In this document: positions 32,249 to 54,275 of the stretch, in pieces
Numbering within the stretch: position 1 is the stretch's first letter
Layout of the letters: each line of letters starts with the position of its first letter
NCBI GenBank assembly: GCA_016795105.1
Contig: JAEUIH010000001.1
Coordinates: 1-64,000 of the forward strand
Direction of reading: 5' to 3'
From: Planctomyces sp.
Lineage (GTDB): Bacteria > Planctomycetota > Planctomycetia > Planctomycetales > Planctomycetaceae
Length of the DNA: 64,000 nucleotides
Program-made: the position numbers and the translations under genes
The notes under the pieces: generated by a model
The model's database searches: none
What the model was told of the DNA's origin: nothing
The model's input: only the letters and a program-made list of their open reading frames with translations

Positions 32249-32268
32249 GACAATGGGACCGCGTATTT

Positions 32269-38416: not shown

Positions 38417-38427
38417 CCTGTGTGATT

Positions 38428-39342: not shown

Positions 39343-39540
39343 TTCTGCGATTGACCCCCGCGGGGTCGCACAACAACCACAGAAATGCAGCTTTTGTACT
39401 CGTACTCCGCAACGCGGTACTCGTACTCGACCGAACCCTCCATTACTCCCATTCGCACCCGTAACACCTTGCTGATCTTCCGCTGCCTTCTCTGCGTCCT
39501 TGCGCCTCCCCGCCTCTGCGTTACCTTTTCCTCCAGCCCG
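39343..39540. repeat. GTACTC composite repeat, copy A (left end and core)
   Basis: The leader block CGATTCTGCGATTGACCCC is followed by the left end (39396-39430: GTACTCGTACTC, 9 bp, GTACTCGTACTCGA) and the core (CTTCTCTGCGTCCTTGCG, CTGCGTTACC, CCAGCCCGT). No inverted right end is visible. The surrounding region 39140-39556 holds no gene. Confidence 0.85.
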
Positions 39541-39556
39541 TCCGTAGTTCATTTCT

Positions 39557-40417
39557 CTACCACGTTCTTAAATGTGAAATGCGTGGTTCGCGGTTGTGAC
39601 CTTCCGCGGCTCGCACGATTGGCAGCATCTGGAATCCCGTCGCGCTGAACCGTGAGGCAATCGCTGGATGGCGACTGAGATGATTCCGGCTGGCTGGTCC
39701 AATCGTCTTGCCTCCGCATGGATCGGGTGTCCACGCCCAATTCTCGTCGGGATTCGGCCCCGTCCCGCGTGTGAAGGTCAAATTCCAGTCTACTTCCCAA
39801 TCGAACGATTGGATCGGCTCGACAGCTCCGGTTGGTGACTTTGCGGCTAAGACAGTCGTAAACTGCAGCCTTAGCCAGACATGGTGAAGCCAGTTGGATA
39901 CAGGGAATCGACTAGCCACCGGGTTCATCCTGCGACACTCAATGAAGTCAGCAGGTGTGTCATTGAACGGAATCAATAAGTTGTGATGACTCGCAGTTGC
40001 CGTCTGAACAGAAAGAGGGTGATACCACGGCTGGCCTGGCTCAGCCTCTTGTGCCTGGTCCAACATCAATCGATTCTGTTCGCTGGTCGGGTAGAACTGC
40101 AGAAACACGGAACCATCGGCTGGAGTCACACCGCGATAGACAACATCGAAAACCTGAAACCGCAGGAACTGAATGAAGCCGAATTTCCATCCCGCCGCGT
40201 TGCGATAAAGCTGGAGCTGAGCGTGCGCCTGGACTCCAGGAACAGTGATCCCTCGTCCAAAACCATTACCGGACGTCAGCCCAACACCTGCGCAGCTTCC
40301 CTCGCCCGGAACATCGATCGGTTGAATCTGTCCCATACGCCTCAACGGCGCCACGACGTTCACGTTCGATTGTCCGGGCGGAGTCACTTGAATGGAGACT
40401 GACTGAACTGGAGCCAT
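39557..40417 (-). CDS. Hypothetical protein
   Basis: 286 residues with a strong ribosome-binding site (AAGGAGG, 4 nt before ATG). Sequence is beta-rich with many aromatic residues (FGFIQFLRFQVFDVVYRG, DWEVDWNLTFTRG), lacks a signal peptide or membrane segments, and fits no family I recognise. The last about 45 residues (after DPCGGKTIGPAS) are basic and irregular and run toward repeat DNA, so the original C-terminus may have been replaced. It lies 9 bp after 40427-40933 and is probably co-expressed. Confidence 0.65.
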   Translation of the reverse strand: MAPVQSVSIQVTPPGQSNVNVVAPLRRMGQIQPIDVPGEGSCAGVGLTSGNGFGRGITVPGVQAHAQLQLYRNAAGWKFGFIQFLRFQVFDVVYRGVTPADGSVFLQFYPTSEQNRLMLDQAQEAEPGQPWYHPLSVQTATASHHNLLIPFNDTPADFIECRRMNPVASRFPVSNWLHHVWLRLQFTTVLAAKSPTGAVEPIQSFDWEVDWNLTFTRGTGPNPDENWAWTPDPCGGKTIGPASRNHLSRHPAIASRFSATGFQMLPIVRAAEGHNREPRISHLRTW

Positions 40418-40426
40418 AATGCCTCC

Positions 40427-40933
40427 TTAACCGGGATTTCGAAACCCTGCATAGTCGATTGGTGTCAAAAAAAACGAACGGCTGAACAACCGCTGTTGCC
40501 AGTAGCCGGCATCGCGAAAAGCCTGTAACGTAGCACCGATCATTTCGCGATGCTTTGAAACAAAGTGATCTTCCATAATCATGACGATCCGATGGTCTGC
40601 AGCAATCTGTCTGAAACCGTCCCTCCATGGAACGACCTTCAAGTTCAGTTGGTTTGTATCAACATCCAGAGGCGACAAGCCAAACTGCGGATAGAAGTCG
40701 AGCTTGCGAATTTCGTCATCGCGTCCCAGGATGGCAAGATTCCACCCCAACTGTTGAACGGTTTGCTCATTAACACCTTCGGTCTCGATCCGCAAGACAT
40801 GTCGAAGCATCTGCCATTGTGCAACATGTCGAGTTGCCAGGAAACGCCATGCGATACCGGCAACGAGTACGAGCATTCCAAGCATGATCGCCGCGCCCCA
40901 CCGGATTCGTCGTCGCATTTGTTCAGTGACCAT
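40427..40933 (-). CDS. Hypothetical single-pass membrane protein
   Basis: 168 residues: a basic N-terminus (MRRRIRW), one membrane segment (GAAIMLGMLVLVAGIAWRF), then a soluble domain. The stretch HRIVMIMEDHFVSKHREMIG is loosely like the conserved Glu/His strand of erythromycin-esterase/TraB-type domains, but the protein stops soon afterwards (PIDYAGFRNPG), so it may be truncated. Nine bp separate it from the next gene. Confidence 0.6.
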   Translation of the reverse strand: MVTEQMRRRIRWGAAIMLGMLVLVAGIAWRFLATRHVAQWQMLRHVLRIETEGVNEQTVQQLGWNLAILGRDDEIRKLDFYPQFGLSPLDVDTNQLNLKVVPWRDGFRQIAADHRIVMIMEDHFVSKHREMIGATLQAFRDAGYWQQRLFSRSFFLTPIDYAGFRNPG

Positions 40934-41029
40934 GCGTCGTCGCGGTTCGACGCTTGAGAAATTGATGTGACTCGCGGACGTGGGAAACGGTCAGCACAAG
41001 GTTCTACACAGGGCCACCAAAGAAAGCCA

Positions 41030-41383
41030 TCATCGGGATTCGGTTTGGAATTGCTGTTGCGAATCGTCGAGCGATGTTCCGGGCGGCGAAAACAATTTGA
41101 AGAGCCGCTTTGCGAATACAACAACAAAAACAAGCCACACCAGCAAGAATATTACTGATAAGACATAGGCGGTTTCGACTTCACCGGCCCCCAGCAGGGA
41201 ACTCATGTCATGCGGTGGTCGATACGGCGCGGCTGCAAGAGCATAAAGCAAGATGGCCGGAAAAGGGAGAAAGAGTATTGGCAACATGATCGGCCAATAC
41301 CCCAGGATCTTCCGAAATCGAGATTGAGTTGTTCCATCCAGTGCAGTTGGGGCGGAATACAGATTGTTGCAACTTTCGTTCAC
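41030..41383 (-). CDS. Small membrane protein with YxAP N-terminus
   Basis: 117 residues from a GTG. N-terminus NNLYSAPTALD recalls the NPYxPP start common in small planctomycete membrane proteins. Two membrane segments (GYWPIMLPILFLPFPAILLYAL and YVLSVIFLLVWLVFVVVFA). No known family. Confidence 0.6.
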   Translation of the reverse strand: MNESCNNLYSAPTALDGTTQSRFRKILGYWPIMLPILFLPFPAILLYALAAAPYRPPHDMSSLLGAGEVETAYVLSVIFLLVWLVFVVVFAKRLFKLFSPPGTSLDDSQQQFQTESR

Positions 41384-41416
41384 GTGTCGGTCGGTTTCTT
41401 TGAACTTCAGCCACCC

Positions 41417-41767
41417 TTATCGGATCGAAGTGTTTACAGGTTTGCCATCTGCAAGGAACGTCACCTCACCACGTTCTACCTGCACTTGAATTTGAGCCAC
41501 GTCATTTTCAATCTCTGCCACCGCCACACCATCGACAAGCAAAGCGGTAGGCTGCACAACGATTTCCTTTCTGCCGGTCTTGATTGTTGCGGTGTCTGAA
41601 GCAAACGTACACCAACAATAGATCGAATCAGAGTTGGCAATGACGCTTCGTCCCGAGCGAAGAGTCCCACCAGCAGAACTACCAGAAGCGGCCACTGCGG
41701 CAAACAGCATTGCTATAACCAATAATGGTACAGCAATTAAAACCCGGTTGATCCATTGTCGTGCCAT
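41417..41767 (-). CDS. Small membrane-anchored protein
   Basis: 116 residues from the ATG at 41767, chosen because GGAGGAG stands just before it. One N-terminal membrane segment (VLIAVPLLVIAMLFAAVAA) is followed by a small beta-rich domain (SDTATIKTGRKEIVVQPTALLV). It is 33 bp upstream of the 117-residue membrane protein in the same direction. Function unknown. Confidence 0.68.
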   Translation of the reverse strand: MARQWINRVLIAVPLLVIAMLFAAVAASGSSAGGTLRSGRSVIANSDSIYCWCTFASDTATIKTGRKEIVVQPTALLVDGVAVAEIENDVAQIQVQVERGEVTFLADGKPVNTSIR

Positions 41768-42001
41768 GAGACTCCTCCGTGTTCGGGGTAGTGAAACGCC
41801 GCAAGAGTCCCTGTTTTTGCTGTTTACGTCAAGATCAACCGAGAAACAACAAAGGTCACTGGTTGCCACCCTTTAACCTGCGATTTCTTGACATCGACTG
41901 CAAGGTAACTCGCCTGCCGAGGTTGATTTGATTCTCGAAATTCGGGCGGCCCCCATTTCCGTCGCGTCATTTCGTTAGCTTGCCCTGCAGACCAGTCTTT
42001 C

Positions 42002-42418
42002 CGAGTACGATGAAGTCGGGAGAACTGAGCCACCCAAACGCCCGCCATTCCATGACAGGCGCGTGTTCAATTCAGCGATTCTGCGATTGACCCCAACGGG
42101 GTTCCTCAAGAAAGTCTCAGATGCAAAACTAACGTACTCCAGACTCGAATCTGTGGAACCCCGTTGGGTGTTGAATCGCACTGCAAACAACCGAAGAATT
42201 CAACTCTTCATACTCGTACTCGATCGAACTCTCCAATATTCCCATTCGCACCCGCAGCATCTCGTCGATCCTGGCCTGTCTTCTCTGCGCCCTTGCGCCT
42301 CCCCGACTCTGCGTAACCTTTTCCTTCAGCCCGTCTGTAATTCATGATCGAAGACTGGTTCGTTCGCCAACGTGTTTTCGAGTACGAGTGCCGTTGCGTT
42401 GAGTACGAATACGATCAA
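42002..42418. repeat. GTACTC composite repeat, copy B with an extra right-end remnant
   Basis: A solitary right-end fragment (CGAGTACGATGAAGTC, 42002-42018) is followed by a full copy: the leader block CGATTCTGCGATTGACCCC near 42076, AACCCCGTTGGG, a shortened left end (42210-42225), the core, and an inverted right end (42378-42415: CGAGTACGAGTG, 9 bp, GAGTACGAATACGA). The 590 bp between neighbouring genes (41768-42460) contain no other feature. Confidence 0.87.
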
Positions 42419-42460
42419 GTCAGAAATGCCAGAACGACCATGCGAACCCGAAGGCCGCAG

Positions 42461-42820
42461 TCATCCGAACCACAGAAAATCAATGGGCCTGGCCCACGCA
42501 AATATGCAAGTCGCAAAGAAGCCTGCACTACCCTGCAAAACCATTCGATTCGATCTTCTAACGATACCCACAGACACAATCAACGTCGCGAGTATTCCAG
42601 CCACATGGGTAAGCACCCAAAGTACAACAGAGCCTGGCTCCGAAGCCAGGACAGAGGCAAACGACTTGAAGCCACCATAGAAACGAAAACGCTCTACTGC
42701 ACTTCCCGCAATCCAAAGTCCACCCACCAATACGATCGCGGCAAGAAAAATCCGAGCCGGTTCAGTTGACGGTGAATCGGCGGGACTTCGTACTGCAGGA
42801 GGTTGATATGGATTGGGCAT
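42461..42820 (-). CDS. Small membrane protein with NPYQPP N-terminus
   Basis: 119 residues from the ATG at 42820 (MPNPYQPPAVRSP). The NPYxPP start followed by three to four hydrophobic segments (IFLAAIVLVGGLWIAG, VVLWVLTHVAGILATLIVSV and SAGFFATCIFAWA) is a layout common to uncharacterised planctomycete membrane proteins. No ribosome-binding site is obvious. The 5' end overlaps the preceding gene by 59 bp, next to an A9 tract, so translation may depend on that gene. Confidence 0.65.
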   Translation of the reverse strand: MPNPYQPPAVRSPADSPSTEPARIFLAAIVLVGGLWIAGSAVERFRFYGGFKSFASVLASEPGSVVLWVLTHVAGILATLIVSVGIVRRSNRMVLQGSAGFFATCIFAWARPIDFLWFG

Positions 42821-43298
42821 GTTTCTTTTTTTTTGGCGGTGCGACAGTATCTCCAAGCGAAAAACGAGGCCCCTCCACGCCAGATCGAATCCAGTAAGGA
42901 ATCGGGGGCGATTTGATCCCAAATGGCCCCCGATTTGTGTGATTGTAGTACAACTTTTCGTCATCATCCGTAAACCGCCCACAACACCGACAGTGAACAT
43001 AGGTGAGATTGCTGTCGGCGGCACCAACGCTAATGTCTATCCATTCTGGAATTCGGCCATCGCGGTAAAGAAAGCGTATACAATCATCTCGCGTCATCTC
43101 CCTATAGTCGTTCAGCGAAGCGAGGGAATCTGCGGGATATACGATTTCCTCGTCTTCGCGGTTGCCGTCATACGATTGGTTGGGAAAGATCCGATAGACA
43201 TACTTGTCGGGCAACTCATCAAGCAGCATCGTCTTCGCGAATGCAATAGCGTCTGCAGTCGCAAGGTCGAGTAGTTGCGAAAACTCGGATACGTTCAT
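42762..43298 (-). CDS. Hypothetical immunity-like protein
   Basis: 178 residues. Acidic, aspartate-rich sequence (ASLNDYREMTRDDCIRFLYRD) with a conserved-looking aromatic core (GRIPEWIDISVGAADSNLTY) and a Cys pair (CRCCGRF). Size and composition resemble immunity proteins of polymorphic toxin systems, without a precise family. The last about 25 residues follow an A9 tract (PPKKKKHAQ...) and overlap the next gene out of frame, so a slippage or frameshift may have changed the C-terminus. The start lies 41 bp from a GTACTC repeat arm. Confidence 0.6.
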   Translation of the reverse strand: MNVSEFSQLLDLATADAIAFAKTMLLDELPDKYVYRIFPNQSYDGNREDEEIVYPADSLASLNDYREMTRDDCIRFLYRDGRIPEWIDISVGAADSNLTYVHCRCCGRFTDDDEKLYYNHTNRGPFGIKSPPIPYWIRSGVEGPRFSLGDTVAPPKKKKHAQSISTSCSTKSRRFTVN

Positions 43299-43338
43299 CG
43301 CTCACTCTATTTTCCGTGTGACGCATCAGTGTTTTTTT

Positions 43339-43800
43339 GAGTATGAGTACCGTTTCCCTGAGTACGAGTACGAACTGAGAGGGCCCATTGGTCGGTGAGG
43401 TCCACATCGCAGAATTTGGGCTGCCCCTTCAGGGCGGTTGCGGCGGTTCTGGCTCAATTCCCTTGGGCGTTGCCCCAGGCTGCCTTAGTATGCCCCTTCA
43501 GGGCCGATGCGCGTAAAGATTCGTTCCGTGATGTTCCTGACGACCAATGTTTGATGGCGCCCTCGGGCTTTGTTTTAAAACTGCATCGGGACTCAACCGC
43601 AGATTCACCGCACAACATGCGGCCGTCGTACTCGTACTCAGCAACGCGGTACTCGGACTCGTACTCGCTCTGTCCTTGCCTTCTCTGCGTCTCTGCGTTC
43701 GCTTTCTCGACAAGCCCGTTCGGCTCTGATGATCGAAAACTGGTGCGATCAACCGCGTGTTTTCGAGTACGAGTACCGTTTCACTGATTACGAGTACGAT
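43339..43800. repeat. GTACTC composite repeat, copy C (mosaic)
   Basis: Order: a right-end arm alone (43339-43374), a CCTTCAGGG-type block (43421-43512; CTGCCCCTTCAGGGCGG ... GGGCGTTGCCCCAGGCTG ... CCCCTTCAGGGCCG), a left end (43628-43670), the core, and the inverted right end (43763-43799; CGAGTACGAGTACC ... GATTACGAGTACGA). The same order recurs at 49003-49443. The 620 bp 43299-43921 hold no gene. Confidence 0.88.
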
Positions 43801-43921
43801 GAAGTCCGGAAAGCCTGAAGACCAGAACAACTGAAATCACCGCCGACGCATTGTTCGGTCGTGAGTCTTGATCAACCAGATGGCATATACTCTTCGTAAA
43901 CAAAGAGCATTCATGGCGTGG

Positions 43922-44560
43922 TCATTTGCCCTGCGCTTCAATTGCCTGACAGAATGCATCGACGATCATTTCGGCCTTACGGATCTCGTTCAACGTGTTT
44001 TGGCTGAACTGCTCTGTGTCGTCTGGTTCTTTCAACTCGCGTAATTCCGTCGGCAGATCGACGTTGAATTGTGAGACGCCTGGCGGATCGTGCTTCATAT
44101 CGATGAGCAGCAAGCGTCCTTTGGATGAATCGATGGCTTCGCCATTTAACGTGATCGATTCTGTCTCAATGCTTTCCGTTCCACTCTTCAGGACAACTTC
44201 ATATTTGACGGTGGACTCGTGGCCGTACGTGCTGATGGTATGAAACGTCTGAGCGGACGCTCTGGTACTTTCGCCTTCAGTCTTTACTCCGGAGTTTGAC
44301 GGATCGTGATTGAATACCAGGAAATACGCGATCCTCCTGGACTGTCCAGGCGGTGTAACAGTCGCAAAAGCAACGCCCGGTTGGTTTGCCTTGACGACGA
44401 CATTGCCATTGGAAATCGAAAGGGCATCGCTTGTTGAGTTGCCCTCGCTCATGATCAGCTCTTGATATTGCGTTGGTGCACTGGACGGAGTTGGTTCCCC
44501 GCCCGTACAGCCCGCCAACACGGTGACGCCGATGACGAGCATCAATTTCAGATATTGCAC
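43922..44560 (-). CDS. Hypothetical lipoprotein
   Basis: 212 residues from a GTG at 44560, with GGAGGT 7 nt upstream. Signal sequence LKLMLVIGVTVLAGC ends in a lipobox (LAGC), predicting a lipidated N-terminus exposed to the periplasm. The rest is polar and beta-rich (YEVVLKSGTESIETESITL), ending with helix. No known family. A longer frame upstream overlaps micropeptide-like sequence at 44600-44675. Confidence 0.7.
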   Translation of the reverse strand: MQYLKLMLVIGVTVLAGCTGGEPTPSSAPTQYQELIMSEGNSTSDALSISNGNVVVKANQPGVAFATVTPPGQSRRIAYFLVFNHDPSNSGVKTEGESTRASAQTFHTISTYGHESTVKYEVVLKSGTESIETESITLNGEAIDSSKGRLLLIDMKHDPPGVSQFNVDLPTELRELKEPDDTEQFSQNTLNEIRKAEMIVDAFCQAIEAQGK

Positions 44561-44599
44561 AATTAGGACCTCCGAAGGTTGTGACAAATACTGGCGGTA

Positions 44600-44675
44600 A
44601 CCTGGCGGCGGCCACGAACCCTTGAATTGAAAGCCCGCCCGGTCCACCACTCGGGTTGATCATATTGATACTCAT
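44600..44675 (-). other. Micropeptide-like sequence (MSINMINPSGGPGG...)
   Basis: An ATG at 44675 with TTGGAAG upstream opens a frame that reads MSINMINPSGGPGG, then FVAAARLP. It aligns with the 34-residue frame at 52207-52311 (NPNGGSGG ... FVAAGGP). Here the frame runs on into the lipoprotein gene out of phase, so its own end seems lost. The rest of 44676-45048 shows no gene. Confidence 0.45.
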
Positions 44676-45048
44676 CACTTCCAAGGCATTTGGTTGAGGC
44701 GTGTCAGAAATTCGATGTGACGACTGCGATTCTCACAAAAAAGCGGGTTCACCACTCAACTTCACTCAGGAGTTCATGATGGGATTCGACAAACATGCCC
44801 GAGCATCTTATGCCGGAATCGACCACCATGCCAACACTCTATGCCACTGCATTCTCGATCACTGAGGAACGGCCTGGAATAACTGTGTCGCCTCTGAGAA
44901 GACTGTGTCTGTGCTGCGAGGCGGTGTGCTGCCTCACGCGGACGTTTATTCCGTATGCATGCGTGGCCCGAAGAGCCACCACACACTGTGAGTCACTCGC
45001 TTTCCGCCTGTGTCAGAAATCGCCCCCAGGCTATTTGATCTCCGTGGC

Positions 45049-45519
45049 TTAGTCTCTACGGCGAGCCATCGCGATAAAATACGCACCTATACCGAAGAGG
45101 CTTATCATTCCAAGACGAGGATCATGAGGCTTACCCACTAAGGCGCTAATGCCGTATAAGCCGCACAGCACAAAGAAAATGCCGCCAACACCATAACCAA
45201 CAAACAACGCAAGTTTCTCAGAAACGGATCGCGGAAGAAGATGCGACATGACGGTCTTTTTCTTAAAACGTGCGGGGATCTGCCTCGGGGGAATGTTGCA
45301 AACAAATTTCCCGGACGATGCGTCTGCAGACCGAACGGGCGTGTCTGCAATCTTCGGGCGTTCTGTCTGTTCAGATAGCAGAACGAGCGAGAAGTCCGGT
45401 GCGTTGGGTGCGTAAAAGGACTCGGATTCCGAGATGCTCTTCTGACACCGTGGACATTTGACATCGGCCTTTAGAACGACGCGCGTCGAGCAGACCGGAC
45501 ACTGTACGACTTTGATCAT
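45049..45519 (-). CDS. Small zinc-ribbon membrane protein, paralogue B
   Basis: 156 residues from the Met at 45519 (MIKVVQCPVCSTRVVLKADV). Zinc-ribbon pairs CPVC and CPRC, linker, then IPPRQIPARFKKKTVMSHLLP and two membrane segments (LFVGYGVGGIFFVLCGLYGI and LGMISLFGIGAYFIAMA). It is the paralogue of 38669-39139; the C-terminal half is nearly identical and the linker has diverged. It may sense or stabilise something at the membrane; function unknown. Confidence 0.8.
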   Translation of the reverse strand: MIKVVQCPVCSTRVVLKADVKCPRCQKSISESESFYAPNAPDFSLVLLSEQTERPKIADTPVRSADASSGKFVCNIPPRQIPARFKKKTVMSHLLPRSVSEKLALFVGYGVGGIFFVLCGLYGISALVGKPHDPRLGMISLFGIGAYFIAMARRRD

Positions 45520-45622
45520 GTGTTGTGAGCCCAATGGAATCGCTTAGTGAGCGACCTTACTGCCGAACCCTTCTCACCGAATCTTCACTTGTCATCTCGA
45601 TTGTCTCTCGTCTCCGCTGCCA

Positions 45623-45990
45623 CTAGCCATTTAGGTTTCCTGGTGCCCGATTCCAGAATTTCCACCACGACGATTTCGCGGTCGGTTGCGCCTGGTCATT
45701 GTTAGTTTTAGCGTCGGTTCCACCAACCGCAACCGTGGGCAATGAAACCCGCGAAAGCAGGGCATCACATTTTTGGGCAATGTCCGGCTTCAGCTCGACA
45801 CTAAGAATCGACGAGTGGTTGATTGATACGTATCGAATAAATGTCCAGAAACAGAGTTTTGAACCATCTTGTGGTCGCTAAAGGCAATGTCTAAATCCAT
45901 GTCACCAGTCGACAGGACATTGCATTTTGGGCACCGACATATGGCGCCGAACTTGATTTCGCCGCAGTTGAGACAAAGTGCCCATGTCAT
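45623..45990 (-). pseudogene. Frameshifted zinc-ribbon protein gene
   Basis: The first frame (from 45990) encodes a zinc ribbon MTWALCLNCGEIKFGAICRC-PKC and DIAFSDHKMVQ, then loses sense and stops at 45790. A second frame, with no start of its own, picks up at about 45870 and reads DGSKLCFWTFIRYVSINHSS, ILSVELKPDIAQKCDALLSR and SSWWKFWNRAPGNLNG before a TAG at 45623. The two halves look like one protein of about 140-150 residues joined out of frame, probably by an internal deletion. Sequencing error is an alternative. Confidence 0.72.
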
Positions 45991-46060
45991 TTAGGTGAAC
46001 TCCTGTCCTGCGGGACGAACGCTTGCAGAAACCAGACTCCTTCTCCGGTTGACGACCTTG

Positions 46061-46531
46061 TCATGCCATGTCAGGCAACACGTTTAATTCGAGCCACGTG
46101 CTCAGGAGTACGCGATATTCATCACGTGAAACCAATTCCGACAGCTCCATCTCAGTATGATGCCATCCATCCAGAAAGAAGACCAGTGTTCCTTCATTGT
46201 GAGTCGGGGTTCGGTAGATCCGGGTTGGCGGAGGAGCCAGTCGGATCAAGAGACAAAATCGCCGACCCACAGCGATTTCAATCCTGCCCCCAAAGCGGTT
46301 GGTCAGCTGGACTCCGAATCCTCCAATTTCTGAAAGACCAATTCGTTCATCATCTGGCCGCTCGGCATTCTGATCTGCGAGCTGAATCGCGAATCGATCG
46401 TGAGTATCTTCCAGGAAACGGACGACGGAATCTGTGTCGTGCAGTTCGGTGTAAATGAAGTCAACGTTACATCCTTCCTGCGTTTCGATGAGTTCACCAA
46501 CACGGGCAGTACAAAATGCCGCTTCGTCCAT
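46061..46531 (-). CDS. Hypothetical immunity-like protein
   Basis: 156 residues from the ATG at 46531 (MDEAAFCTARVGELIETQ). An acidic small protein with alternating strands and helices (ELHDTDSVVRFLEDTHDRFAI, FFLDGWHHTEMELSELVSRD). No signal peptide or membrane segment. Resembles single-domain immunity proteins in size and composition; no exact family. The upstream 39 bp end in the remnant of a duplicated gene, so its original promoter may have been lost. Confidence 0.62.
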   Translation of the reverse strand: MDEAAFCTARVGELIETQEGCNVDFIYTELHDTDSVVRFLEDTHDRFAIQLADQNAERPDDERIGLSEIGGFGVQLTNRFGGRIEIAVGRRFCLLIRLAPPPTRIYRTPTHNEGTLVFFLDGWHHTEMELSELVSRDEYRVLLSTWLELNVLPDMA

Positions 46532-46569
46532 ATCGCATTCGTCTTGGTTTGGGTATTGACTTGGATGAT

Positions 46570-46797: not shown

Positions 46798-46849
46798 CAA
46801 CTCTGCCTGAACGGAATGTTCTGTTGTTTTGGACCGAAAATTGGCTTTA

Positions 46850-47437
46850 TCATTTCAGGACGAGTGAATCTGGGCCCGCAACTTCAACCCATTCATCAGT
46901 TCCAACAGCCTGCCCCAACACCTTCATTACTAAATCCCTGGTGATCGGCTTATCGCGTGGTATGAGACAAAGCAGTTCTTCAATCCCACTGCGGGCAAAG
47001 CCCCTTTTCACAGTTGTCGACGAGACCTCTGCCTGTTGAATGACAAACACGCTCCAGAACCTCTCGGGCAGACGGAAGGAACCTTCTGCAATCGGAATGT
47101 CCGTGGCATCTACTTCAGTGTCAAAAGAGATTTCAAAACTCCGACCAGGAAACTCCCGCTCGTCGAGCATTAGAGCTGTGGATGCAAGATCACGTTCTGC
47201 GATCGTCGCATAACACGCGTATGCAGGAAAGTAAACAACGTACAGGAAATCATTTAGTCCGTCATCGCGATGAGCATAGTACTTCTCACACCAGAGCACA
47301 GTGCCAACTAATCCGTCACTGGGCAGCTGGGCTTCAATTGGGCGAAACGTGGCAAAATCATCTCTTCTTGTGATGACTTCCTCAAACTGCCGGTACCGTG
47401 GAGATTTCAGGTCGTGGGGCATTACGCGTTTGGTCAT
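46850..47437 (-). CDS. Hypothetical protein
   Basis: 195 residues from the ATG at 47437 (MTKRVMPHDLKSPRYRQFE). Soluble, mixed alpha/beta (VVYFPAYACYATIAERDL, LPERFWSVFVIQQAEVS). No known motif. Its start codon follows the stop of the Tat-signal gene by one base, so the two are translationally coupled and probably act together. Confidence 0.68.
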   Translation of the reverse strand: MTKRVMPHDLKSPRYRQFEEVITRRDDFATFRPIEAQLPSDGLVGTVLWCEKYYAHRDDGLNDFLYVVYFPAYACYATIAERDLASTALMLDEREFPGRSFEISFDTEVDATDIPIAEGSFRLPERFWSVFVIQQAEVSSTTVKRGFARSGIEELLCLIPRDKPITRDLVMKVLGQAVGTDEWVEVAGPDSLVLK

Positions 47438-47438
47438 T

Positions 47439-48140
47439 TCACTGAGCAATTCGGTCCGTATACAGATAGCCGCTCTCGTGCATTAGTAAACCAACGTTGG
47501 GGTTCATCATTCGGAAGTCGTTCTTCCATGAATCGTAGGACCATCCAGGACAACCAACGATGATGATTCGGCCATTTTCCCGGAGTGCTACGCTACAGGC
47601 AAGGCCAAGAAGAAATACAAAGTGCCGCTCATGTTCGGAGGTCGGAGTCAACGAATCGCGGTCAATCACTTTTGCGTTCCAGATTCCGAAAGCTTTTGAA
47701 TAGCTGCCGCTCCCCCGCTCTTTTCTCAGCGGCGTCCCAAGCAGCCGCGTCGCCAGCGTGTATGGCGTCCATCGTTGAGCGAGAGTGACCGGTGAAATGA
47801 TGCGGATGCGGTCAGATGTGTACTGATCGCTTGTGTTGAAGGATTTCAACTCCGAAGCTTGTTCTTCGGCATCATAGTGGTAACTCATCCAATGGTAGAG
47901 TGGATCAAGCGACGCTGCTTCAACTGGCAACGGTTTTCTCTCAACGACGACCCAATATGCGAACGTTGTTGTAATCGGGCTCGTACTCAGCTCTTCAAAG
48001 GGATAGAGGGACGGCGTTTCATCCACTGGTCGTTCTGACCCGATCGGCTGAGCTGTTGAATGCCCACCCGCGGAAGCGATCAGAGCGGTACTCGCCGCAA
48101 GAGAGATTATTTCGCGGCGGCTCAGAGGCTCAGTGTTCAA
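47439..48140 (-). CDS. Hypothetical Tat-exported protein
   Basis: 233 residues from a TTG. The N-terminus LSRREIISLAASTALIASAG is a twin-arginine signal with cleavage near STA-QP. The mature part contains FAYWVVVERKPLPVEAASLD and FVFLLGLACSVALRENGRII. No family is recognised. The stop overlaps the start region of the next gene. The 48141-48317 gap holds no gene. Confidence 0.68.
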   Translation of the reverse strand: MNTEPLSRREIISLAASTALIASAGGHSTAQPIGSERPVDETPSLYPFEELSTSPITTTFAYWVVVERKPLPVEAASLDPLYHWMSYHYDAEEQASELKSFNTSDQYTSDRIRIISPVTLAQRWTPYTLATRLLGTPLRKERGSGSYSKAFGIWNAKVIDRDSLTPTSEHERHFVFLLGLACSVALRENGRIIIVGCPGWSYDSWKNDFRMMNPNVGLLMHESGYLYTDRIAQ

Positions 48141-48317
48141 TTGTGCACCCAGACCTTCCTTCGTGGTGATTGAGGCATAGCGATTCGGTGAACCGGTTTG
48201 CCACGAGTCAAATTCCCAAACGAATGCTTACGTATCGGCGAGTCTCCGAGGTTCGTATTCTGTCCTCGCGTCAGCTTACGACGCGAGTTTTCCACCAGCC
48301 AGTGTTCGGCAATGACT

Positions 48318-48917
48318 CTATCGAGAAGCCGGAGGGACGAGCTTCTTCTCGTCTATAATGATTGACCTTATTGTCTGATCGACAAAGTCAGAAGTAATCG
48401 GCTTAGCCGACGTATGCTGCGCGAACACCGCACCATTCGGACCAACCCATGCGCGGCCATGAGCCATCAGGTTCTCACGGTCTGGCGATTCAGAGATAAA
48501 GCAATACTCCAGGAGTTTTTCGCCCTTGAGTGATGCATTCGTTCGACCAATGTCCACAACTTCAATCGCCAACACGCTTGTCGACGTTGTACCACGAGGC
48601 TGAGTCCAGACGGCGCGCCCATTCGGAAAGATTTCAAGCGATGTGTCAGACAGAGACTCCAATGGTCGGTTTTTCCCAAGGTCTGGATGTGTCGCAAACG
48701 ACAGAAGATCGCCGGTTTTCCTGTTCCGAAAGACTTGCCACCGGAACGGCAACTTGACTTCTGGTTCTCTTTTTTTATCGTCGGTGTTGATTTCCCAGTC
48801 AGCACCAAGGTCTGGTAAGGAACGGATAGGATCAGGTTCTTGAGCCGATCCGATTTCACAATCGATGAGTGCAGCACCGACAACTGACAAAAGCAAAGCC
48901 AGAAGTTGTTTGGTCAT
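48318..48917 (-). CDS. Hypothetical secreted protein
   Basis: 199 residues with a signal peptide (KQLLALLLSVVGAALIDC, cleavage near GSA-QE) and GAGGAT before the start. The mature domain (LPFRWQVFRNRKTGDLLSFA, EIFPNGRAVWTQPRGTTSTS) is unknown. A decayed copy of its C-terminal half lies at 46570-46797. The start is 86 bp from a GTACTC repeat arm. Confidence 0.72.
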   Translation of the reverse strand: MTKQLLALLLSVVGAALIDCEIGSAQEPDPIRSLPDLGADWEINTDDKKREPEVKLPFRWQVFRNRKTGDLLSFATHPDLGKNRPLESLSDTSLEIFPNGRAVWTQPRGTTSTSVLAIEVVDIGRTNASLKGEKLLEYCFISESPDRENLMAHGRAWVGPNGAVFAQHTSAKPITSDFVDQTIRSIIIDEKKLVPPASR

Positions 48918-49002
48918 GGAATCCTCGATTTCCGATCGCCAGGGGTAACCGGACCTCGGCCGCCAGCCTGGTGTTTAGGATACTCGTCAGCAGCGTTCTT
49001 TT

Positions 49003-49443
49003 CGAGTACGAGTACCGTTTCACTGAGTACGAATACAAATTAGATCGGGGTGTGGCGATCGGGCAATTAGCTTCAAATCGGAGAATTTAGGCTGCCCCTT
49101 CAGGGCGGTTTTTCGTGGTTTCGTGGCGATTCCTGGGGCGTTGCCCCAGGCTGCCTTAGCGTGCCCCTTCAGGGCCGTTGAGCGTGAAAAGCCTCTCTTT
49201 GATTTTTTCGGAGTGTGTCGCTCGGCGGCCACCCCATGCATTGATGTGAAACCCCGTTGGGGTTGAATTGCAATACAACCCACCTAATGCACCTCTTCGT
49301 ACTCTTACTCAGCGAAGCGGTACTCGTACTCGCTCTTCGTCTGCCGTCTTTGCGTCTCTGCGTTACCATTTTCGACAACCCGTTCGGCTCTCACACTCGA
49401 AAACATCTGCAACGAGCAGCGGCTTCCTGAATACGAGTGTGAA
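49003..49443. repeat. GTACTC composite repeat, copy D (mosaic)
   Basis: Same order as copy C: a right-end arm (49003-49038; CGAGTACGAGTACC, then CACTGAGTACGAATAC), the CCTTCAGGG block (49091-49192), AACCCCGTTGGGGTT near 49250, a left end (49298-49334), the core, and a decayed right end (CCTGAATACGAGTGTGA, 49426-49442). The 570-bp gap 48918-49490 contains no gene. Confidence 0.87.
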
Positions 49444-49490
49444 AAAATGCGGAGAACGGCTGAGTCGCAAAACAACGAAGGCTGGTGCGA

Positions 49491-50201
49491 TCAATGAATG
49501 CCTCGAAAACACAGTTTGTAATAATTTGCGACGCTCCAGAACACCAGGATACTTGGGAAAACAGCAAAGCAATACATCATTGACTCTGAGTTGATATTCC
49601 CCTGGATCGCAGAAGTCGCAAAAAACGTCAACGGCACACTACTTAACGCAGCCGTCGGCTTCTTCCAGCCGCCGACATTATTCAGCGCCAACGTGCATGC
49701 AGAAAAAGCTATGATCATATAGTGGTATGTCATTTTGCCAACCAGTATCAACCAAACAGAAGTGACTGTTATCTCGTGGCGGTAGACTCCAAGCGCCAGT
49801 GGTATAGCGACCGACAAGAGGGCAAAATATCGAACATGAAGTTGCTTTCGAGAAGTAGCGCCAAGAACTGTCGCAACGAATGGCAAAACGCAGGCAAACT
49901 GGGCACCGGTGCAAGAGTCTCCAAGGTTCGACAGCACGCCAAGTCTGTGGCGGAGACCGGTCAAATGTTCATCCCACTGTTGCCAATCCCGGCGATCTGG
50001 AGGACCGGCTTCAAACGCTGATACGTAGTGTTGCAGTGCGGCAATGATTGCTGGACGGAGCCAAATGAACGCAAGCTCTGCGGTCAACATGAAGATGACG
50101 GTCAAGCACTGTAATTTTATTGCAGTCCGTTGGCCTTGAAATGGTGGCCTTACATTTCCAATCTCGTAGGGCGACAGTGGCGGGGTACTGTTTGAATTCA
50201 T
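49491..50201 (-). CDS. Hypothetical multi-pass membrane protein
   Basis: 236 residues from the ATG at 50201 (MNSNSTPPLSPYEIG), with GGGAAG upstream. The Pro-rich N-terminus ending SPYE recalls the NPYxPP group. About five membrane segments (LQCLTVIFMLTAELAFIWL, GAQFACVLPFVATVLG, YFALLSVAIPLALGVY, VWLILVGKMTYHYMIIAF and MMYCFAVFPSILVFWSVA). Function unknown. Confidence 0.68.
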   Translation of the reverse strand: MNSNSTPPLSPYEIGNVRPPFQGQRTAIKLQCLTVIFMLTAELAFIWLRPAIIAALQHYVSAFEAGPPDRRDWQQWDEHLTGLRHRLGVLSNLGDSCTGAQFACVLPFVATVLGATSRKQLHVRYFALLSVAIPLALGVYRHEITVTSVWLILVGKMTYHYMIIAFSACTLALNNVGGWKKPTAALSSVPLTFFATSAIQGNINSESMMYCFAVFPSILVFWSVANYYKLCFRGIH

Positions 50202-50771
50202 GGACTTCCCTTTCTGTTGTTTGAGCATCCAGCAGAACCTTCTTTCGAGGTTGTCTCAGGGACCAGAGATGCGGGGGTGTCACAGGACTTCAGTACATTA
50301 GCGTTTGTTGATCTCCGACGCGTAGGAAAATAGGCCTTCTCGCAAGTTCTGTCAGTATAGTTCGCATCGCCGGATCAGGATCTGAGTCTCGATGATTCGA
50401 ATCGATGCACGGCGTTCGATATGAGATAGACGTGCCGTACAGCAATAGTAGGCATGCATGAGATCGTTCGTTTCATACATGTAGTGTGGCAGGTTGTGTA
50501 AATGGTCTATATCAACTGCAAATAGTCAAATCGATCAGGCAGCCGATACTGTGGATGTCGGGGAGCGATCACGGTTATAAGTCGTTTCGAATGTTGGACA
50601 CAGATTCGATCAAGTGCGACTGCGACCATCGTCCAGGACTTCGGTTTTACGAAATACCCAGGATTTCATCATTAGACAGGGGAGTCGCTTAAAGTAAGAA
50701 AGCAGTTGCTCTGCGGCAGAAGTTCCTGTTGGCTGTCGTCGTTCCCGTGAAGGGAAATGGCATTCATCGTG
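50202..50771. other. Gene-free gap in the island
   Basis: 570 bp between the membrane protein and kptA, with AT content higher than nearby genes. I see no coding frame with a ribosome-binding site, no tRNA and no copy of the composite repeat. The GATTCGAATC at 50395 is palindromic but isolated. Confidence 0.4.
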
Positions 50772-51320
50772 TCAGTTTTCGGGGAATTCTATGAACTGTG
50801 ATGGCACATGGGCGGTAAGCCAAACTCCATTCTCGGAAACGAAGAAGCTGAAGCCAGCTTCAGCCATCTTCTTGCCAGAGATCTGCAGCACAATTGGTCG
50901 TCCGTGGCGGGCTCCCACTCTCTTAGCCGTCTCATCGTCAACAGAAAGATGGACATAATCCCGCTTACCACGAAGCAGGCCGTTTTCACGGATCGCAGTC
51001 AGATTTGTTATTGCCGTTCCATGGAAGAGTAAATCCGGTGGGATGGACGGGATCAGAGCGAGATCGACGCCGATAGAATGACCCTGCGACGCGCGTATCC
51101 GGACTTGATCTTCTGAAAACGCGAATCTCCGTTTGTCGTTCGTCTCAACAATTTCCTGTAGCATATCGCGTGTGAACTGCGGGCGGCGGCTCTGCATAGC
51201 CTCCAGAAGGGTCGATACTTCAACCCAGCCTGCTTCGTCCAACTGAATCCCGATGACGGCAGGATCGTGGCGAAGGACCAGGCTCAGGAACTTACTGTAC
51301 TCTACAAGTTCGCGACGCAT
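50772..51320 (-). CDS. kptA: RNA 2'-phosphotransferase (Tpt1/KptA family)
   Basis: 182 residues, full length for the family. Tpt1/KptA removes an internal RNA 2'-phosphate by transfer to NAD. Expected catalytic residues: the Arg-His pair in LSLVLRHDP near the N-terminus, the Arg of RIRASQGHS, and the C-terminal lobe FHGTAITNLTAIRENGL with the NAD-binding HGT. Bacterial KptA has no known tRNA-splicing role; it may repair RNA 2'-phosphates or act on ADP-ribosylation. It is a single gene in the island with unrelated neighbours. The 51321-51669 gap upstream holds no gene. Confidence 0.95.
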   Translation of the reverse strand: MRRELVEYSKFLSLVLRHDPAVIGIQLDEAGWVEVSTLLEAMQSRRPQFTRDMLQEIVETNDKRRFAFSEDQVRIRASQGHSIGVDLALIPSIPPDLLFHGTAITNLTAIRENGLLRGKRDYVHLSVDDETAKRVGARHGRPIVLQISGKKMAEAGFSFFVSENGVWLTAHVPSQFIEFPEN

Positions 51321-51669
51321 AAAATTTTTGGACTCACAGCAAAGTCAAGCTGGTTGCCGCAGGTTACATTCCAACACATGCTCAGCTCATTCGTAATTCG
51401 GCCAGGTCTTCCTATTCGCCGTCAGTGTCAATAAATGTCAATTGGCAATCCAGCGGGTAAATCGCAAGCACCGCAACCATTGCCAGTATGAATGTCGCTC
51501 TTTCTCAGATGAACAAGAGTGGGCTGAGACCTCAGGTGCACCAACATCATTCGTGTTTTCAATATTTTTGTTGGCGAACACTACGAGCAACCTGGCCCGC
51601 GCGAAAGATTCTCAACTTCAAAAACGCCAGTTCGCTTGATCCGGTTCTCGCAATGGTTACCCTGGCGGA

Positions 51670-52194
51670 TCAGACAGGCTTGAGTGTTTCGAAGTCTTCC
51701 CCTGTCGAATCCGGCAAATCCATGTCGTAGCGAACTCCAGTCAATGACGCGAACAGCTCAATCGCAACATCGAAGATATGATCAACATCGTCGCCGTCCT
51801 CAGCCTGTCTGCGAAGTTTGTCATCGCGAATCGACGTATATTCCTCAGGGAGGTCGCCGTCTGTTACCAGGTGAGCTCGCGCTTGCTGAGCATCGTGAAA
51901 CACGAACCATTTCTCTTTCCCGTTCTCCCATCCGGTTGCAAAGCTCGACATGCATGTTTCGTTCACGTCGCAGAACAGGAGCTCGGCGTTGTCAGAGAGA
52001 CTAGACAGCAGTTCGCCGTGCGGCCGTGGGTAGTCGTTTAAATACAACAGCTCCCAGCCAGTCGAAACGGTCGCACCGCATACAGGAGATTCAGCAATCT
52101 CCTCGCGTTGGCCGGTGCGTAGAATTCCGTATCGCTCATAGAACGTGTCAGCATCAATTCCCCGAACAGCGATCAGTGCAACACGGTAACCCAT
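51670..52194 (-). CDS. Hypothetical immunity-like protein
   Basis: 174 residues (MGYRVALIAVRGIDADTFYE). Begins with a beta-strand typical of small alpha/beta immunity proteins, then GWELLYLNDYPRPHGELLSS and KWFVFHDAQQARAHLVTDGD, with an acidic C-terminus. No exact family. ATG is preceded by TGGAG. It follows the micropeptide frame by 12 bp, and the SUFU gene before that, in one probable transcription unit. Confidence 0.68.
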   Translation of the reverse strand: MGYRVALIAVRGIDADTFYERYGILRTGQREEIAESPVCGATVSTGWELLYLNDYPRPHGELLSSLSDNAELLFCDVNETCMSSFATGWENGKEKWFVFHDAQQARAHLVTDGDLPEEYTSIRDDKLRRQAEDGDDVDHIFDVAIELFASLTGVRYDMDLPDSTGEDFETLKPV

Positions 52195-52206
52195 TGATAC
52201 TCCATT

Positions 52207-52311
52207 TCAGTACTGTTTGGAATAACCCTCAGGGCCGCCGGCGGCGACAAAGGGCCTTTGGTGGCGGAATCCGCCCGATCCGCCGTTCGGATTCACCGAA
52301 TTGTTACCCAT
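52207..52311 (-). CDS. Possible 34-residue Gly-rich micropeptide
   Basis: The frame reads MGNNSVNPNGGSGG, then RHQRPFVAAGGPEGYSKQY, and stops. Its ATG overlaps the end of the SUFU gene by 8 bp, compatible with coupled translation, and it ends 12 bp before the next gene. A second sequence at 44600-44675 encodes a related peptide (NPSGGPGG ... FVAAARLP). Two similar peptides in two positions argue for a family rather than chance, but no clear ribosome-binding site stands before this copy. Function unknown; alternatively it is a remnant of a protein C-terminus. Confidence 0.45.
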   Translation of the reverse strand: MGNNSVNPNGGSGGFRHQRPFVAAGGPEGYSKQY

Positions 52312-52957
52312 CTTTTCGTCGAAGATCAGTGACCAGCAGTGGATTCGATTTGCGATGCTGTTCAATGATCTCTTCGCATTTTCTGGACTTGTTCATCAGA
52401 CTGTCGAGCTCTGATTGCGTAAGGCCAAAGGCCTGGATGAAGTCCACGTGACCGTGCGGCGTTTCCACGGCCTGAAGCTTTGTGTCATAAACGAATGCGA
52501 GGCCCACAATGTCTGTATCGTGGTCAGATCGGATTGGACCGTTGGCGGGAATCCAGTGGTATTTGTCAAACCATTTTCCGGATTCAAACACGTACCGAGC
52601 GAGATTCTGCAGAAGATTGCAGACCCAGATCGGCTCTTCCTGTGGTGGAAAAGAACTGACCAATCGAAACGTCATTTCGAATCCGAACTTGCTGAAATCA
52701 CTGCCCACAGATTCTTCGTCGTAGTACAACGAGGAATACCCAAACGTCACAAAATGCAAGTGGTCTATGCCCCCGTCATCACACGGATAGGCGCTGATGC
52801 CGTCAAGCGGATCGGGACCGCCAAGACCGTAGCTGATCAGCGTTCCCCAGTGCTGTGGTTCAAGGTCACCATACACGTCGCGCAGGCTGACATTCAGCGA
52901 ATCCCAACCGGGCGATGAATCTTCGGCAAATTGTCGCTTATATTCTTCAAGGTTCAT
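52304..52957 (-). CDS. Suppressor-of-fused (SUFU) domain protein
   Basis: 217 residues from the ATG at 52957 (MNLEEYKRQFAED). The SUFU signature is clear: PGWDSLNVSLRDVYGDLEPQ, HWGTLISYGLGGPDPLDGIS and IDHLHFVTFGYSSLYYDEES, then FEMTFRLVSS. In bacteria, SUFU-domain proteins are mostly predicted immunity proteins of polymorphic toxin systems. No toxin gene is adjacent, so this would be an orphan. Its stop overlaps the micropeptide frame. Confidence 0.92.
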   Translation of the reverse strand: MNLEEYKRQFAEDSSPGWDSLNVSLRDVYGDLEPQHWGTLISYGLGGPDPLDGISAYPCDDGGIDHLHFVTFGYSSLYYDEESVGSDFSKFGFEMTFRLVSSFPPQEEPIWVCNLLQNLARYVFESGKWFDKYHWIPANGPIRSDHDTDIVGLAFVYDTKLQAVETPHGHVDFIQAFGLTQSELDSLMNKSRKCEEIIEQHRKSNPLLVTDLRRKDG

Positions 52958-53020
52958 AGGTGTACCTGACAATGTTCGGGATCACTGCGCCGTTGCGAAC
53001 GAGTCTCCACTGCACACAAC

Positions 53021-53656
53021 CTAACTCGGCGGATCACGTACATCCGATTGTTCCTCGTCGGTGTCGTGCAAGTCAGCGAGTCTCTCCAGACCGTGAGCAT
53101 TCGCATACCTCAGACCAAGTATAGATAAAGCCTTATTGGGCCAAAACTCAAGACTTATCTGTCCGCTGGACATACCGCCCTGCGAGAATCGTTCAATGAA
53201 ACATCTGTTCTGTCCGTCTTCAATTCGCATCCCAACCAGGGCCTGGAAGGCAATTAGGATTGTATCACGAAGCTCCGTCTCAGTCTGGGGGAGTGGAACC
53301 CCGGAAAACATCTTCTTCATTTCGCGCCATAGGTATGGATCGCCACGAAGCCCCCATTGGCCCGGCTCGGGATCAAATAGGTCAGCTATCGATGATGTGG
53401 GTCTGTCCGCCGGCACTGACGGGTCTCGATGTGAATCACCGCGAAGTTTAATGTGCAGAACGTACTCGGAGACGGATCCGTCCCAGCCGCATTGCGTGCA
53501 TGCTCCGCCCTGTATGGAATGATTGCACCGAGTCTTGCCGTAGATCCAGTAAGCACATTCCCGACAAAGCCCCGACATGGCCAACGGCGTGCGAATGAAC
53601 GTGCTGCCACACTCATCACAGGTGCCGGGTTCTTCGGGATCAATGTAAGGCATCAT
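53021..53656 (-). CDS. Hypothetical protein with N-terminal zinc-binding motifs
   Basis: 211 residues. Cys pairs CDEC, CREC, C-N-H and CTQC in the first about 60 residues form one or two zinc ribbons (TRCNHSIQGGACTQCGWDG). The rest is a mixed alpha/beta domain (LRDTILIAFQALVGMRIEDG, GMSSGQISLEFWPNKALSIL) followed by an acidic tail. No known family. It lies 63 bp upstream of the SUFU gene and probably shares its transcript. Confidence 0.68.
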   Translation of the reverse strand: MMPYIDPEEPGTCDECGSTFIRTPLAMSGLCRECAYWIYGKTRCNHSIQGGACTQCGWDGSVSEYVLHIKLRGDSHRDPSVPADRPTSSIADLFDPEPGQWGLRGDPYLWREMKKMFSGVPLPQTETELRDTILIAFQALVGMRIEDGQNRCFIERFSQGGMSSGQISLEFWPNKALSILGLRYANAHGLERLADLHDTDEEQSDVRDPPS

Positions 53657-54069
53657 CGGTTCGGGGGACAGGTCCTAAACTGAAACTTAAGCTTAGATAG
53701 AACGGTGCAATTCTGTCTAACACAGATCGTATTCTGCCTCACACAAGTGCCAGTTCCAAGTTTGCTTAAGCGATCCTTTCGCATTAGCTCATAGCTGTAA
53801 GCAGTTGGGGAAGTTGACTCCTCAGAGTCTGAAATGCGCCCAGTGTATTTTCCAGAATGAAACACAGCCTCAAGACTGGGCACCCTGAGCCCGCGCGTGC
53901 TTCGCTCCTTTGGGTAACTTACCCATGGGCTCCAGTCCCCGAAATTCTACGGAAGGCAATTTCCTTCAGCGACCTTGGTCCAGCGAATTCCAATCACATC
54001 TTTCATGACAACGAAAATCGATGAGAGTTCACCCCGATTTCTATTGACTGCACCAGACACGAAAGTGTC

Positions 54070-54275
54070 GATGAACCCCGTTGAGGATGAATCGCACTCC
54101 AACCCCAACAATGCGGCCCTTGTACTCGTACTCAGCACCGCGGTACTCGTACTCGATCTTGTCAGCCTTCTCTGCGCCCTTGCGTCTTTGCGTTACCCCT
54201 TCCGACAGCCCGTTAGGCTCTCACACTCGAAAGCAGGTGCGGTCAGCAGCGTTCTTTTCGAGTACGAGTACTCGA
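54070..54275. repeat. GTACTC composite repeat, copy E
   Basis: AACCCCGTTGAGGATGAATC is followed by the left end (54122-54157; GTACTCGTACTC, AGCACCGCG, GTACTCGTACTCGA), the core (CTTCTCTGCGCCCTTGCGTC, CGACAGCCCGTTAGGCTC), and a shortened inverted right end (TTTTCGAGTACGAGTACTCG, 54257-54276). The 870-bp gap 53657-54526 holds no gene. Confidence 0.87.

What the first reader, a model, noticed from the sequence alone, without database searches (positions are those of the whole stretch)
39343..54275. Composite element with GTACTC-rich inverted ends separates gene modules
At least five left ends (GTACTCGTACTC-N9-GTACTCGTACTC) and five to six inverted right ends enclose a core containing CTTCTCTGCGTC and CTGCGTTACC blocks, about 155-215 bp overall with terminal inverted repeats up to 37 bp. 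Each copy lies between transcription units (near 39.4, 42.2, 43.5, 49.2 and 54.2 kb), and none was seen in the other 46 kb. This is MITE-like in form but cassette-like in distribution: gene groups of one to eight genes, all in the same direction, each flanked by copies. It could mark where modules were exchanged by recombination.
Basis: partly seen in the sequence, partly recalled or inferred. Interest (0 to 1): 0.8.

Follow-up and report, generated by a model that had tools for sequence, protein, structure and literature searches.

The report
Decayed copies of a tiny jumping gene
The GTACTC repeats are worn-down copies of a very small mobile element whose only gene encodes a four-helix-bundle protein (the S23p family of rRNA intervening sequences), and the same one-gene unit, bracketed by inverted short tandem repeats, turns up in many other Planctomycetota and visibly inserts in cyanobacteria.

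Summary
The repeats are real: 19 GTACTCGTACTC matches in the window against 0.13 expected, all within 39.4-54.3 kb. There are five left and five right ends, but only three closed copies. They do not look like module markers: about 50 full ends lie in some 14 clusters genome-wide, many between ordinary genes. In sister genomes the same ends bracket an intact gene of family PF05635/TIGR02436 (S23p, "23S rRNA intervening-sequence protein"); one end is coding and spells the protein's C-terminus, EYEYRDAEYEYE. Two window copies keep about 28-30 nt of that gene's start, so they are internally deleted, MITE-like derivatives. In an uncultured Pirellula a 589-bp GTACTC element interrupts an integron integrase with a 13-bp target duplication; removing it in silico restores the reading frame. 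The pattern is general: 61 of 73 Planctomycetota PF05635 genes and 13 of 13 cyanobacterial plasmid ones lie between inverted short tandem repeats, mostly 7-nt units, against 2-3% in the Planctomycetota controls. Closely related empty sites exist on cyanobacterial plasmids. The enzyme that moves the element is unknown; neither reverse transcriptases nor Y1 transposases are always present.

The parts
39396..39560 (-). Truncated copy: L-type end 39396-39428 plus CTCTGCGTC core, no R end (strand given as that of the element's gene)
   Evidence: no significant match to the S23p gene
42210..42412 (-). Closed copy: half L-type end 42210-42221, R-type end 42380-42412
42327..42370 (-). Relic of the start of the S23p four-helix-bundle gene (ACGAACCAGTCTTCGATCATGAA)
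   Evidence: alignment score 26 against the intact element of G294, best of 300 shuffles 21.5
43339..43371 (-). R-type end of a neighbouring, otherwise missing copy
43628..43797 (-). Closed copy: L-type end 43628-43660 (array to 43666), R-type end 43765-43797
43724..43751 (-). Relic of the start of the S23p gene (ACCAGTTTTCGATCAT)
   Evidence: alignment score 20, best of 300 shuffles 17
49004..49036 (-). R-type end of a neighbouring, otherwise missing copy
49299..49460 (-). Truncated copy: L-type end 49299-49331 plus core, no R end
   Evidence: no significant match to the S23p gene
54122..54271 (-). Closed copy: L-type end 54122-54154, half R-type end 54260-54271; doubtful relic of the S23p gene start at 54215-54248
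   Evidence: relic score 14, p about 0.03 against shuffles

Best explanation
The repeats are internally deleted, non-autonomous copies of a minimal mobile element. The intact element (462 bp between its outer GTACTC repeats; 589 bp in the one case with known borders) carries a single gene for an S23p / 23S rRNA IVP four-helix-bundle protein, between inverted arms built of short tandem repeats. One arm lies in the 5' leader; the other is the 3' end of the reading frame and encodes the protein tail EYEYRDAEYEYE. It is the GTACTC member of a wider class: S23p genes between inverted, mostly 7-nt tandem repeats, each locus with its own repeat word. Shown: gene-in-arms anatomy, gene relics in two window copies, patchy distribution, purifying selection on the protein, empty sites, one 13-bp target duplication. 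Inferred: the protein acts on its own arms (as RNA or single-stranded DNA), much as its distant homologue Avd works with a reverse transcriptase in diversity-generating retroelements, while strand cutting and copying come from enzymes in trans. Gene-less copies are moved by protein from intact copies elsewhere, or are dead relics.
For: Intact PF05635 genes lie exactly between the ends in G294 C3 and C12 and in G246 C49, another family; the L-type end is in frame and coding; graded deletion series down to 124-133 bp in G294; gene relics in window copies 42210 and 43628; 13-bp duplication GATGTGCAGCCTG around a 589-bp insertion in an integron integrase whose frame is restored in silico; both arms change together in Roseimaritima (GTGCTC); dN 0.13-0.19 with dS >1.4 among Fuerstiella and DLM2 copies. 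Class: 61/73 Planctomycetota S23p loci with inverted arms against 1.8% of mismatched pairs and 7/221 other ORFs; 7/14/21-nt periodicity; 13/13 cyanobacterial plasmid loci; empty sites PCC 7002 / PCC 7003, Calothrix NIES-4105 / Nostoc edaphicum, pNsp_a / pNsp_c.
Against: No intact GTACTC-S23p copy was found in the window's own assembly. Three of five window copies show no clear gene relic. Only one clear target duplication within a gene; other borders are ragged or lie in repeats. Element borders differ between subfamilies. No catalytic enzyme is encoded; RVT_1 is missing from 24 and Y1_Tnp from 11 of 93 carriers. S23p is not basic (median pI 7), and single ends do not fold better than shuffles.
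Confidence: 0.75

Rival explanations
1. Same element, moved as RNA: the S23p protein binds the transcript and a host reverse transcriptase copies it into new sites (Avd-like retro-mobility in trans).
For: Sub-threshold similarity of cyanobacterial S23p to bAvd / DGR Avd (E 1e-6 to 1e-9); RVT_1 is commoner in S23p-positive genomes, 69/93 versus 37/102; long 13-bp target duplication.
Against: 24 of 93 carriers have no RVT_1 match, e.g. G011 with 14 S23p copies and 97% completeness; the association is confounded by taxonomy and mobile-element load.
Confidence: 0.3
2. Same element, moved as DNA by a Y1 (IS200/RAYT) transposase in trans, with the S23p gene as helper or passenger.
For: Y1_Tnp is commoner in S23p-positive genomes, 82/93 versus 50/102.
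Against: 20 Y1 loci from nine other Planctomycetota genomes carry inverted repeats of another kind (CCCCGAAGGGGC palindromes) and no 7-nt period; 11 of 93 carriers lack Y1, including G246, which has an intact GTACTC copy. The Y1 loci of the window's own genome were not checked for flanking repeats.
Confidence: 0.12
3. Recombination-module (cassette) marks: the repeats are attC-like or homologous recombination sites that delimit exchangeable gene groups.
For: Same-strand, short, mostly unassigned genes between copies; arrays of small same-strand genes also lie near some other clusters; the block is absent from the loci of four relatives.
Against: Most clusters lie between ordinary genes; no integron integrase over its cut-off; ends lack the RYYYAAC/GTTRRRY boxes; the ends bracket an S23p gene elsewhere; no swap was seen.
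Confidence: 0.07
4. REPIN-like elements: pairs of REP sequences moved by a RAYT, the S23p gene being captured by chance.
For: About 130-bp inverted pairs and dispersed intergenic copies.
Against: The S23p gene sits inside the ends in separate families and is under purifying selection; no RAYT was found beside these ends; Y1 loci sampled in other genomes have different repeats.
Confidence: 0.05

Closest known systems
23S rRNA intervening sequences (IVS) encoding S23p, e.g. Coxiella burnetii, 428 nt (PMC4990558)
   Same: One S23p gene, total size about 0.4-0.6 kb, complementary borders, patchy and horizontal distribution.
   Different: IVSs sit in rRNA helices and are cut out of the RNA by RNase III; the elements here are dispersed in intergenic regions, operons and one integrase gene, have tandem-repeat arms and gene-less derivatives.
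STRR / heptamer repeats of Nostoc, Xanthomonas and Beggiatoaceae (PMC4692102, PMC4679880; STRR otherwise from memory)
   Same: Mostly intergenic tandem 7-nt units; in Xanthomonas often as inverted pairs.
   Different: Described without any link to S23p genes; here each such pair is the arms of an S23p unit. GTACTC arms are 6-nt words in a 21-nt unit.
MITEs
   Same: Short, dispersed, gene-less, inverted ends, derived by internal deletion from a coding element.
   Different: The parent element encodes no recognised transposase.
REP / REPIN with RAYT (PMC3733652)
   Same: Inverted pairs about 130 bp apart, dispersed in intergenic regions.
   Different: No GTAG/CGTC tag and no linked Y1 transposase; sampled Y1 loci have other repeats.
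Avd of diversity-generating retroelements
   Same: Distant four-helix-bundle homologue (sub-threshold matches).
   Different: No reverse transcriptase inside the element.

Membership tests
S23p / IVP four-helix-bundle protein family (PF05635, TIGR02436) | Encoded protein passes the curated cut-off | tested here: met
   L251 69.7 bits and L223 71.3 bits against 33.8 (PF05635); L251 70.1 bits and L142 67.3 bits against 24 (TIGR02436). The window copies themselves keep only relics.
23S rRNA intervening sequence (IVS) | Carries an S23p gene between complementary borders | tested here: met
23S rRNA intervening sequence (IVS) | Lies inside an rRNA gene | tested here: not met
   Copies lie in intergenic regions, operon junctions and one integrase gene
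23S rRNA intervening sequence (IVS) | Excised from RNA by RNase III without ligation | not testable with these tools
   Needs RNA data
MITE | Gene-less copy with inverted ends, related to a coding element | tested here: met
MITE | Target site duplication | tested here: inconclusive
   13 bp for the intact L128 element; none established for gene-less copies
MITE | Parent element encodes a transposase | tested here: not met
   The only gene found between the ends is S23p
Integron cassette array / attC | Integron integrase in the genome | tested here: not met
   Best match 79 bits against a cut-off of 265; the genome is a draft
Integron cassette array / attC | RYYYAAC / GTTRRRY core boxes at the ends | tested here: not met
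   End consensus is GTACTCGTACTC-N9-GTACTCGTACTC
REPIN / RAYT | GTAG or CGTC foot and a linked Y1 transposase | tested here: not met
   No such foot in the end consensus; 20 Y1 loci in nine other genomes have different repeats; Y1 loci of the own genome not checked
STRR-type heptanucleotide repeats | Tandem 7-nt units | tested here: inconclusive
   Met for the class (lag 7/14/21 peaks); the GTACTC arms themselves are 6-nt words in a 21-nt unit
Diversity-generating retroelement | Reverse transcriptase with template and variable repeats next to Avd | not tested
   RVT_1 was only counted genome-wide

The most novel reading that the evidence does not exclude
S23p four-helix-bundle genes define a widespread class of one-gene mobile elements in bacteria whose ends are inverted arrays of locus-specific, mostly heptanucleotide repeats. 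rRNA intervening sequences, cyanobacterial STRRs, the Xanthomonas, Nostoc and Beggiatoaceae heptamers and the Planctomycetota GTACTC repeats would all be forms or relics of it, moved by a mechanism not yet described.
Probability: 0.5. Interest if true: 0.92.

Novelty: new variant of a known kind. Interest (0 to 1): 0.8.

Why it matters
The role of S23p proteins is unknown even in rRNA, and heptanucleotide repeats have been reported in cyanobacteria and other bacteria without an explained origin. Linking the two gives both a testable explanation: the repeats are the arms of a mobile unit and the protein is its conserved component. It also offers before/after insertion sites in bacteria that are in culture (Picosynechococcus PCC 7002 and 7003, Nostoc ATCC 53789), so the moving enzyme can be looked for directly.

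Tried and rejected
Integron/attC reading: no integrase above cut-off, wrong end motifs. Per-end mini-hairpin: the N9 spacer varies in a paired way (AGC..GCG, AGT..ACG, AAT..ATG), but the 33-mers fold no better than shuffles, and in L-type ends the pattern is also set by the codons Arg-x-Ala, so no structural claim is made. RAYT as mover: different repeats at the Y1 loci sampled. Obligatory reverse transcriptase: no match in 24/93 carriers. Basic, nucleic-acid-binding protein by charge: median pI 7. Systematic target-duplication scan: an excess of long flanking direct repeats, but several of the longest lie in tandem arrays, so only L128 is used. Module exchange by synteny: flanking genes are not syntenic in four relatives, so nearly uninformative. 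No structure prediction was run. Literature searches for a link between S23p and heptad repeats found none, but only open-access papers are held.
Full report
OBSERVATION. The window holds 19 matches to GTACTCGTACTC with at most one mismatch, against 0.13 expected, all between 39,396 and 54,271. There are five left (L) and five right (R) ends, two of them half-ends. Only three copies are closed by both ends; the copies at 39.4 and 49.3 kb lack a right end, and the right ends at 43.3 and 49.0 kb are followed by another repeat block. The window lies on contig C111 of an 8.9-Mb Planctomycetaceae draft genome, where the full 33-nt end occurs 50 times (<=3 mismatches; reversed control 0) in about 14 clusters. 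Many clusters lie between ordinary genes.

WHO CARRIES IT. The pattern is patchy: 2 of 294 genomes over the phylum, and 5 of 150 in the family (two of these with a single imperfect match), but 58-59 copies in a same-genus genome, G294. Contig lengths identify G294 as Fuerstiella sp. Bin_49_1 (JALHMY01). Exact copies occur in Pirellula, Rhodopirellula, Roseimaritima, Laterigemmans and others. Patchy presence with closely similar sequence suggests mobility.

WHAT IT IS. The cores between L and R ends in several species contain the start of a reading frame beginning (M)xEPxFDHERLDVYRLSI (read by eye; confirmed). A search for PF05635 (23S rRNA-intervening-sequence protein, S23p) found genes exactly between the ends: G294 C3:83632-83943 inside ends at 83557 and 84018, G294 C12 (with a shortened 5' end), and G246 C49 in another family. 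The protein passes the PF05635 and TIGR02436 cut-offs, and the Roseimaritima relative matches the solved Xanthomonas structure 2gsc. The frame runs through the L-type end, which encodes the tail EYEYRDAEYEYE; the 21-nt unit is seven codons. The R-type end is in the leader. In Roseimaritima both ends read GTGCTC instead, giving EHEHRDAEHEHE, so the two arms change together. In G294 there is a graded series: intact 462 bp, internal deletions of 342, about 264-270 and 235 bp, and 124-133 bp gene-less copies. Window copies 42210-42412 and 43628-43797 keep 28-30 nt of the gene start (alignment scores above every one of 300 shuffles; 54122-54271 is marginal; 39396 and 49299 show none). The window repeats are therefore internally deleted derivatives. 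No intact GTACTC copy was found in the window's own assembly.

EVIDENCE OF MOVEMENT. In an uncultured Pirellula (L128) a 589-bp GTACTC-S23p element interrupts a gene, with the 13-bp sequence GATGTGCAGCCTG at both borders. Removing the element and one repeat in silico gives a continuous 361-codon frame that scores 409 bits as an integron integrase (cut-off 265). Between copies of Fuerstiella and DLM2.Bin10, dN is 0.13-0.19 while dS exceeds 1.4 (near saturation), so the protein is under purifying selection; the copy in G294 C12 is closer to that of another family than to C3 in the same genome.

GENERALITY. PF05635 genes occur in 93 of 195 Planctomycetota genomes, up to 21 per genome. Among 73 loci (mostly the best-scoring hits, several from the same genomes, two of them GTACTC loci), 61 have an inverted repeat between the two flanks (score >=14), against 1.8% of mismatched pairs and 7 of 221 other reading frames in the same loci. 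The arms are tandem repeats with a strong 7/14/21-nt periodicity that is absent from control regions; each locus has its own word. On cyanobacterial plasmids S23p genes show the same: 13 of 13 with inverted, mostly heptad arms, although mismatched pairs there already reach that score in 13%. These plasmids also provide empty sites. Picosynechococcus PCC 7003 has the unit between cas10 and cmr3, PCC 7002 (90.5% identical) does not. Nostoc edaphicum has it between nrdB and nrdA, Calothrix NIES-4105 (85%) does not. Nostoc ATCC 53789 plasmids pNsp_a and pNsp_c each have it where the other is empty (417-bp and 502-bp insertions; TTCTA at both borders of the first). At the other two sites the exact junctions are less sharp.

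HOW IT MAY WORK. Shown: a one-gene unit with matching inverted arms, discrete insertion, decay into gene-less copies, a conserved protein. Not shown: the enzyme. RVT_1 and Y1_Tnp genes are both commoner in S23p-positive genomes (69/93 versus 37/102; 82/93 versus 50/102), but 24 and 11 carriers respectively lack them and 4 lack both; drafts and taxonomy limit this test. Y1 genes in nine other Planctomycetota genomes have their own inverted repeats, of the CCCCGAAGGGGC kind, not heptads; the Y1 loci of the window's genome were not checked. Cyanobacterial S23p is distantly similar to Avd of diversity-generating retroelements (sub-threshold), which suggests, as inference only, a protein that handles its own structured RNA or ssDNA together with a polymerase in trans. 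Protein charge (median pI 7) and the folding of single ends give no support.

Genes in the block are short, same-strand and mostly without Pfam matches, apart from a KptA-like and a SUFU-domain gene. In the ilvC or dehydrogenase loci of four relatives there are neither these genes nor the repeats, and nothing but ilvC-ilvN is syntenic with the window. So the block is lineage-specific, but no exchange at the repeats was seen.

KNOWN RELATIVES. The Coxiella IVS is a 428-nt selfish element with an S23p gene and complementary borders (PMC4990558); such elements sit in rRNA helices and are excised from RNA. Heptamer repeats of Xanthomonas and Nostoc (in Xanthomonas often as inverted pairs) and of Beggiatoaceae were described without any mention of S23p (PMC4692102, PMC4679880). 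Cyanobacterial STRRs I know from memory, with only brief mentions found. I found no paper that joins S23p genes to these repeats; the library is incomplete.

Noticed in passing
window 43376-43540 and 49085-49180: Second, separate repeat block with CCCCTTCAGGGC and GGGGCGTTGCCCC palindromes, weakly matching Rfam Acido-Lenti-1. Inverted repeats of this general kind flank Y1/RAYT transposase genes in other Planctomycetota, so Acido-Lenti-1 may be a REPIN rather than an sRNA.
   Followed up: partly
window 38426-38553 and 55863-55988 (related start at 32267): A direct repeat of about 125 bp (CACGAAAGACACGAACCACACGAA...), about 80% identical, brackets the whole gene block plus the esterase gene; it may be a further repeat family of the same kind.
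   Followed up: no
L128:142-1825: An uncultured Pirellula carries a bona fide integron integrase gene (409 bits on TIGR02249 once the insertion is left out), interrupted by the S23p element.
   Followed up: yes
L331, L338, L339: S23p units sit inside CRISPR-Cas operons on cyanobacterial plasmids: between cas10 and cmr3, and between cas6 and cas4. They could be mistaken for accessory cas genes.
   Followed up: partly
L036:4700-14800, L038:13900-18500, L044:13300-17800: Runs of small same-strand genes of unknown function lie near other GTACTC clusters of this genome, like the one in the window.
   Followed up: no
window 18648-18913 and 60-355: Two unrelated tandem arrays with 34-bp and 71-bp units.
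   Followed up: no
L103, L120, L156: GTACTC ends in contigs labelled Deltaproteobacteria and Kuenenia MAGs; transfer or misbinning.
   Followed up: no
L109:1572-1776, L122:4798-5039: In Laterigemmans baculatus neighbouring full ends are spaced by 42 nt, i.e. tandem expansion of the 21-nt unit, in register with a 7-codon protein repeat.
   Followed up: no
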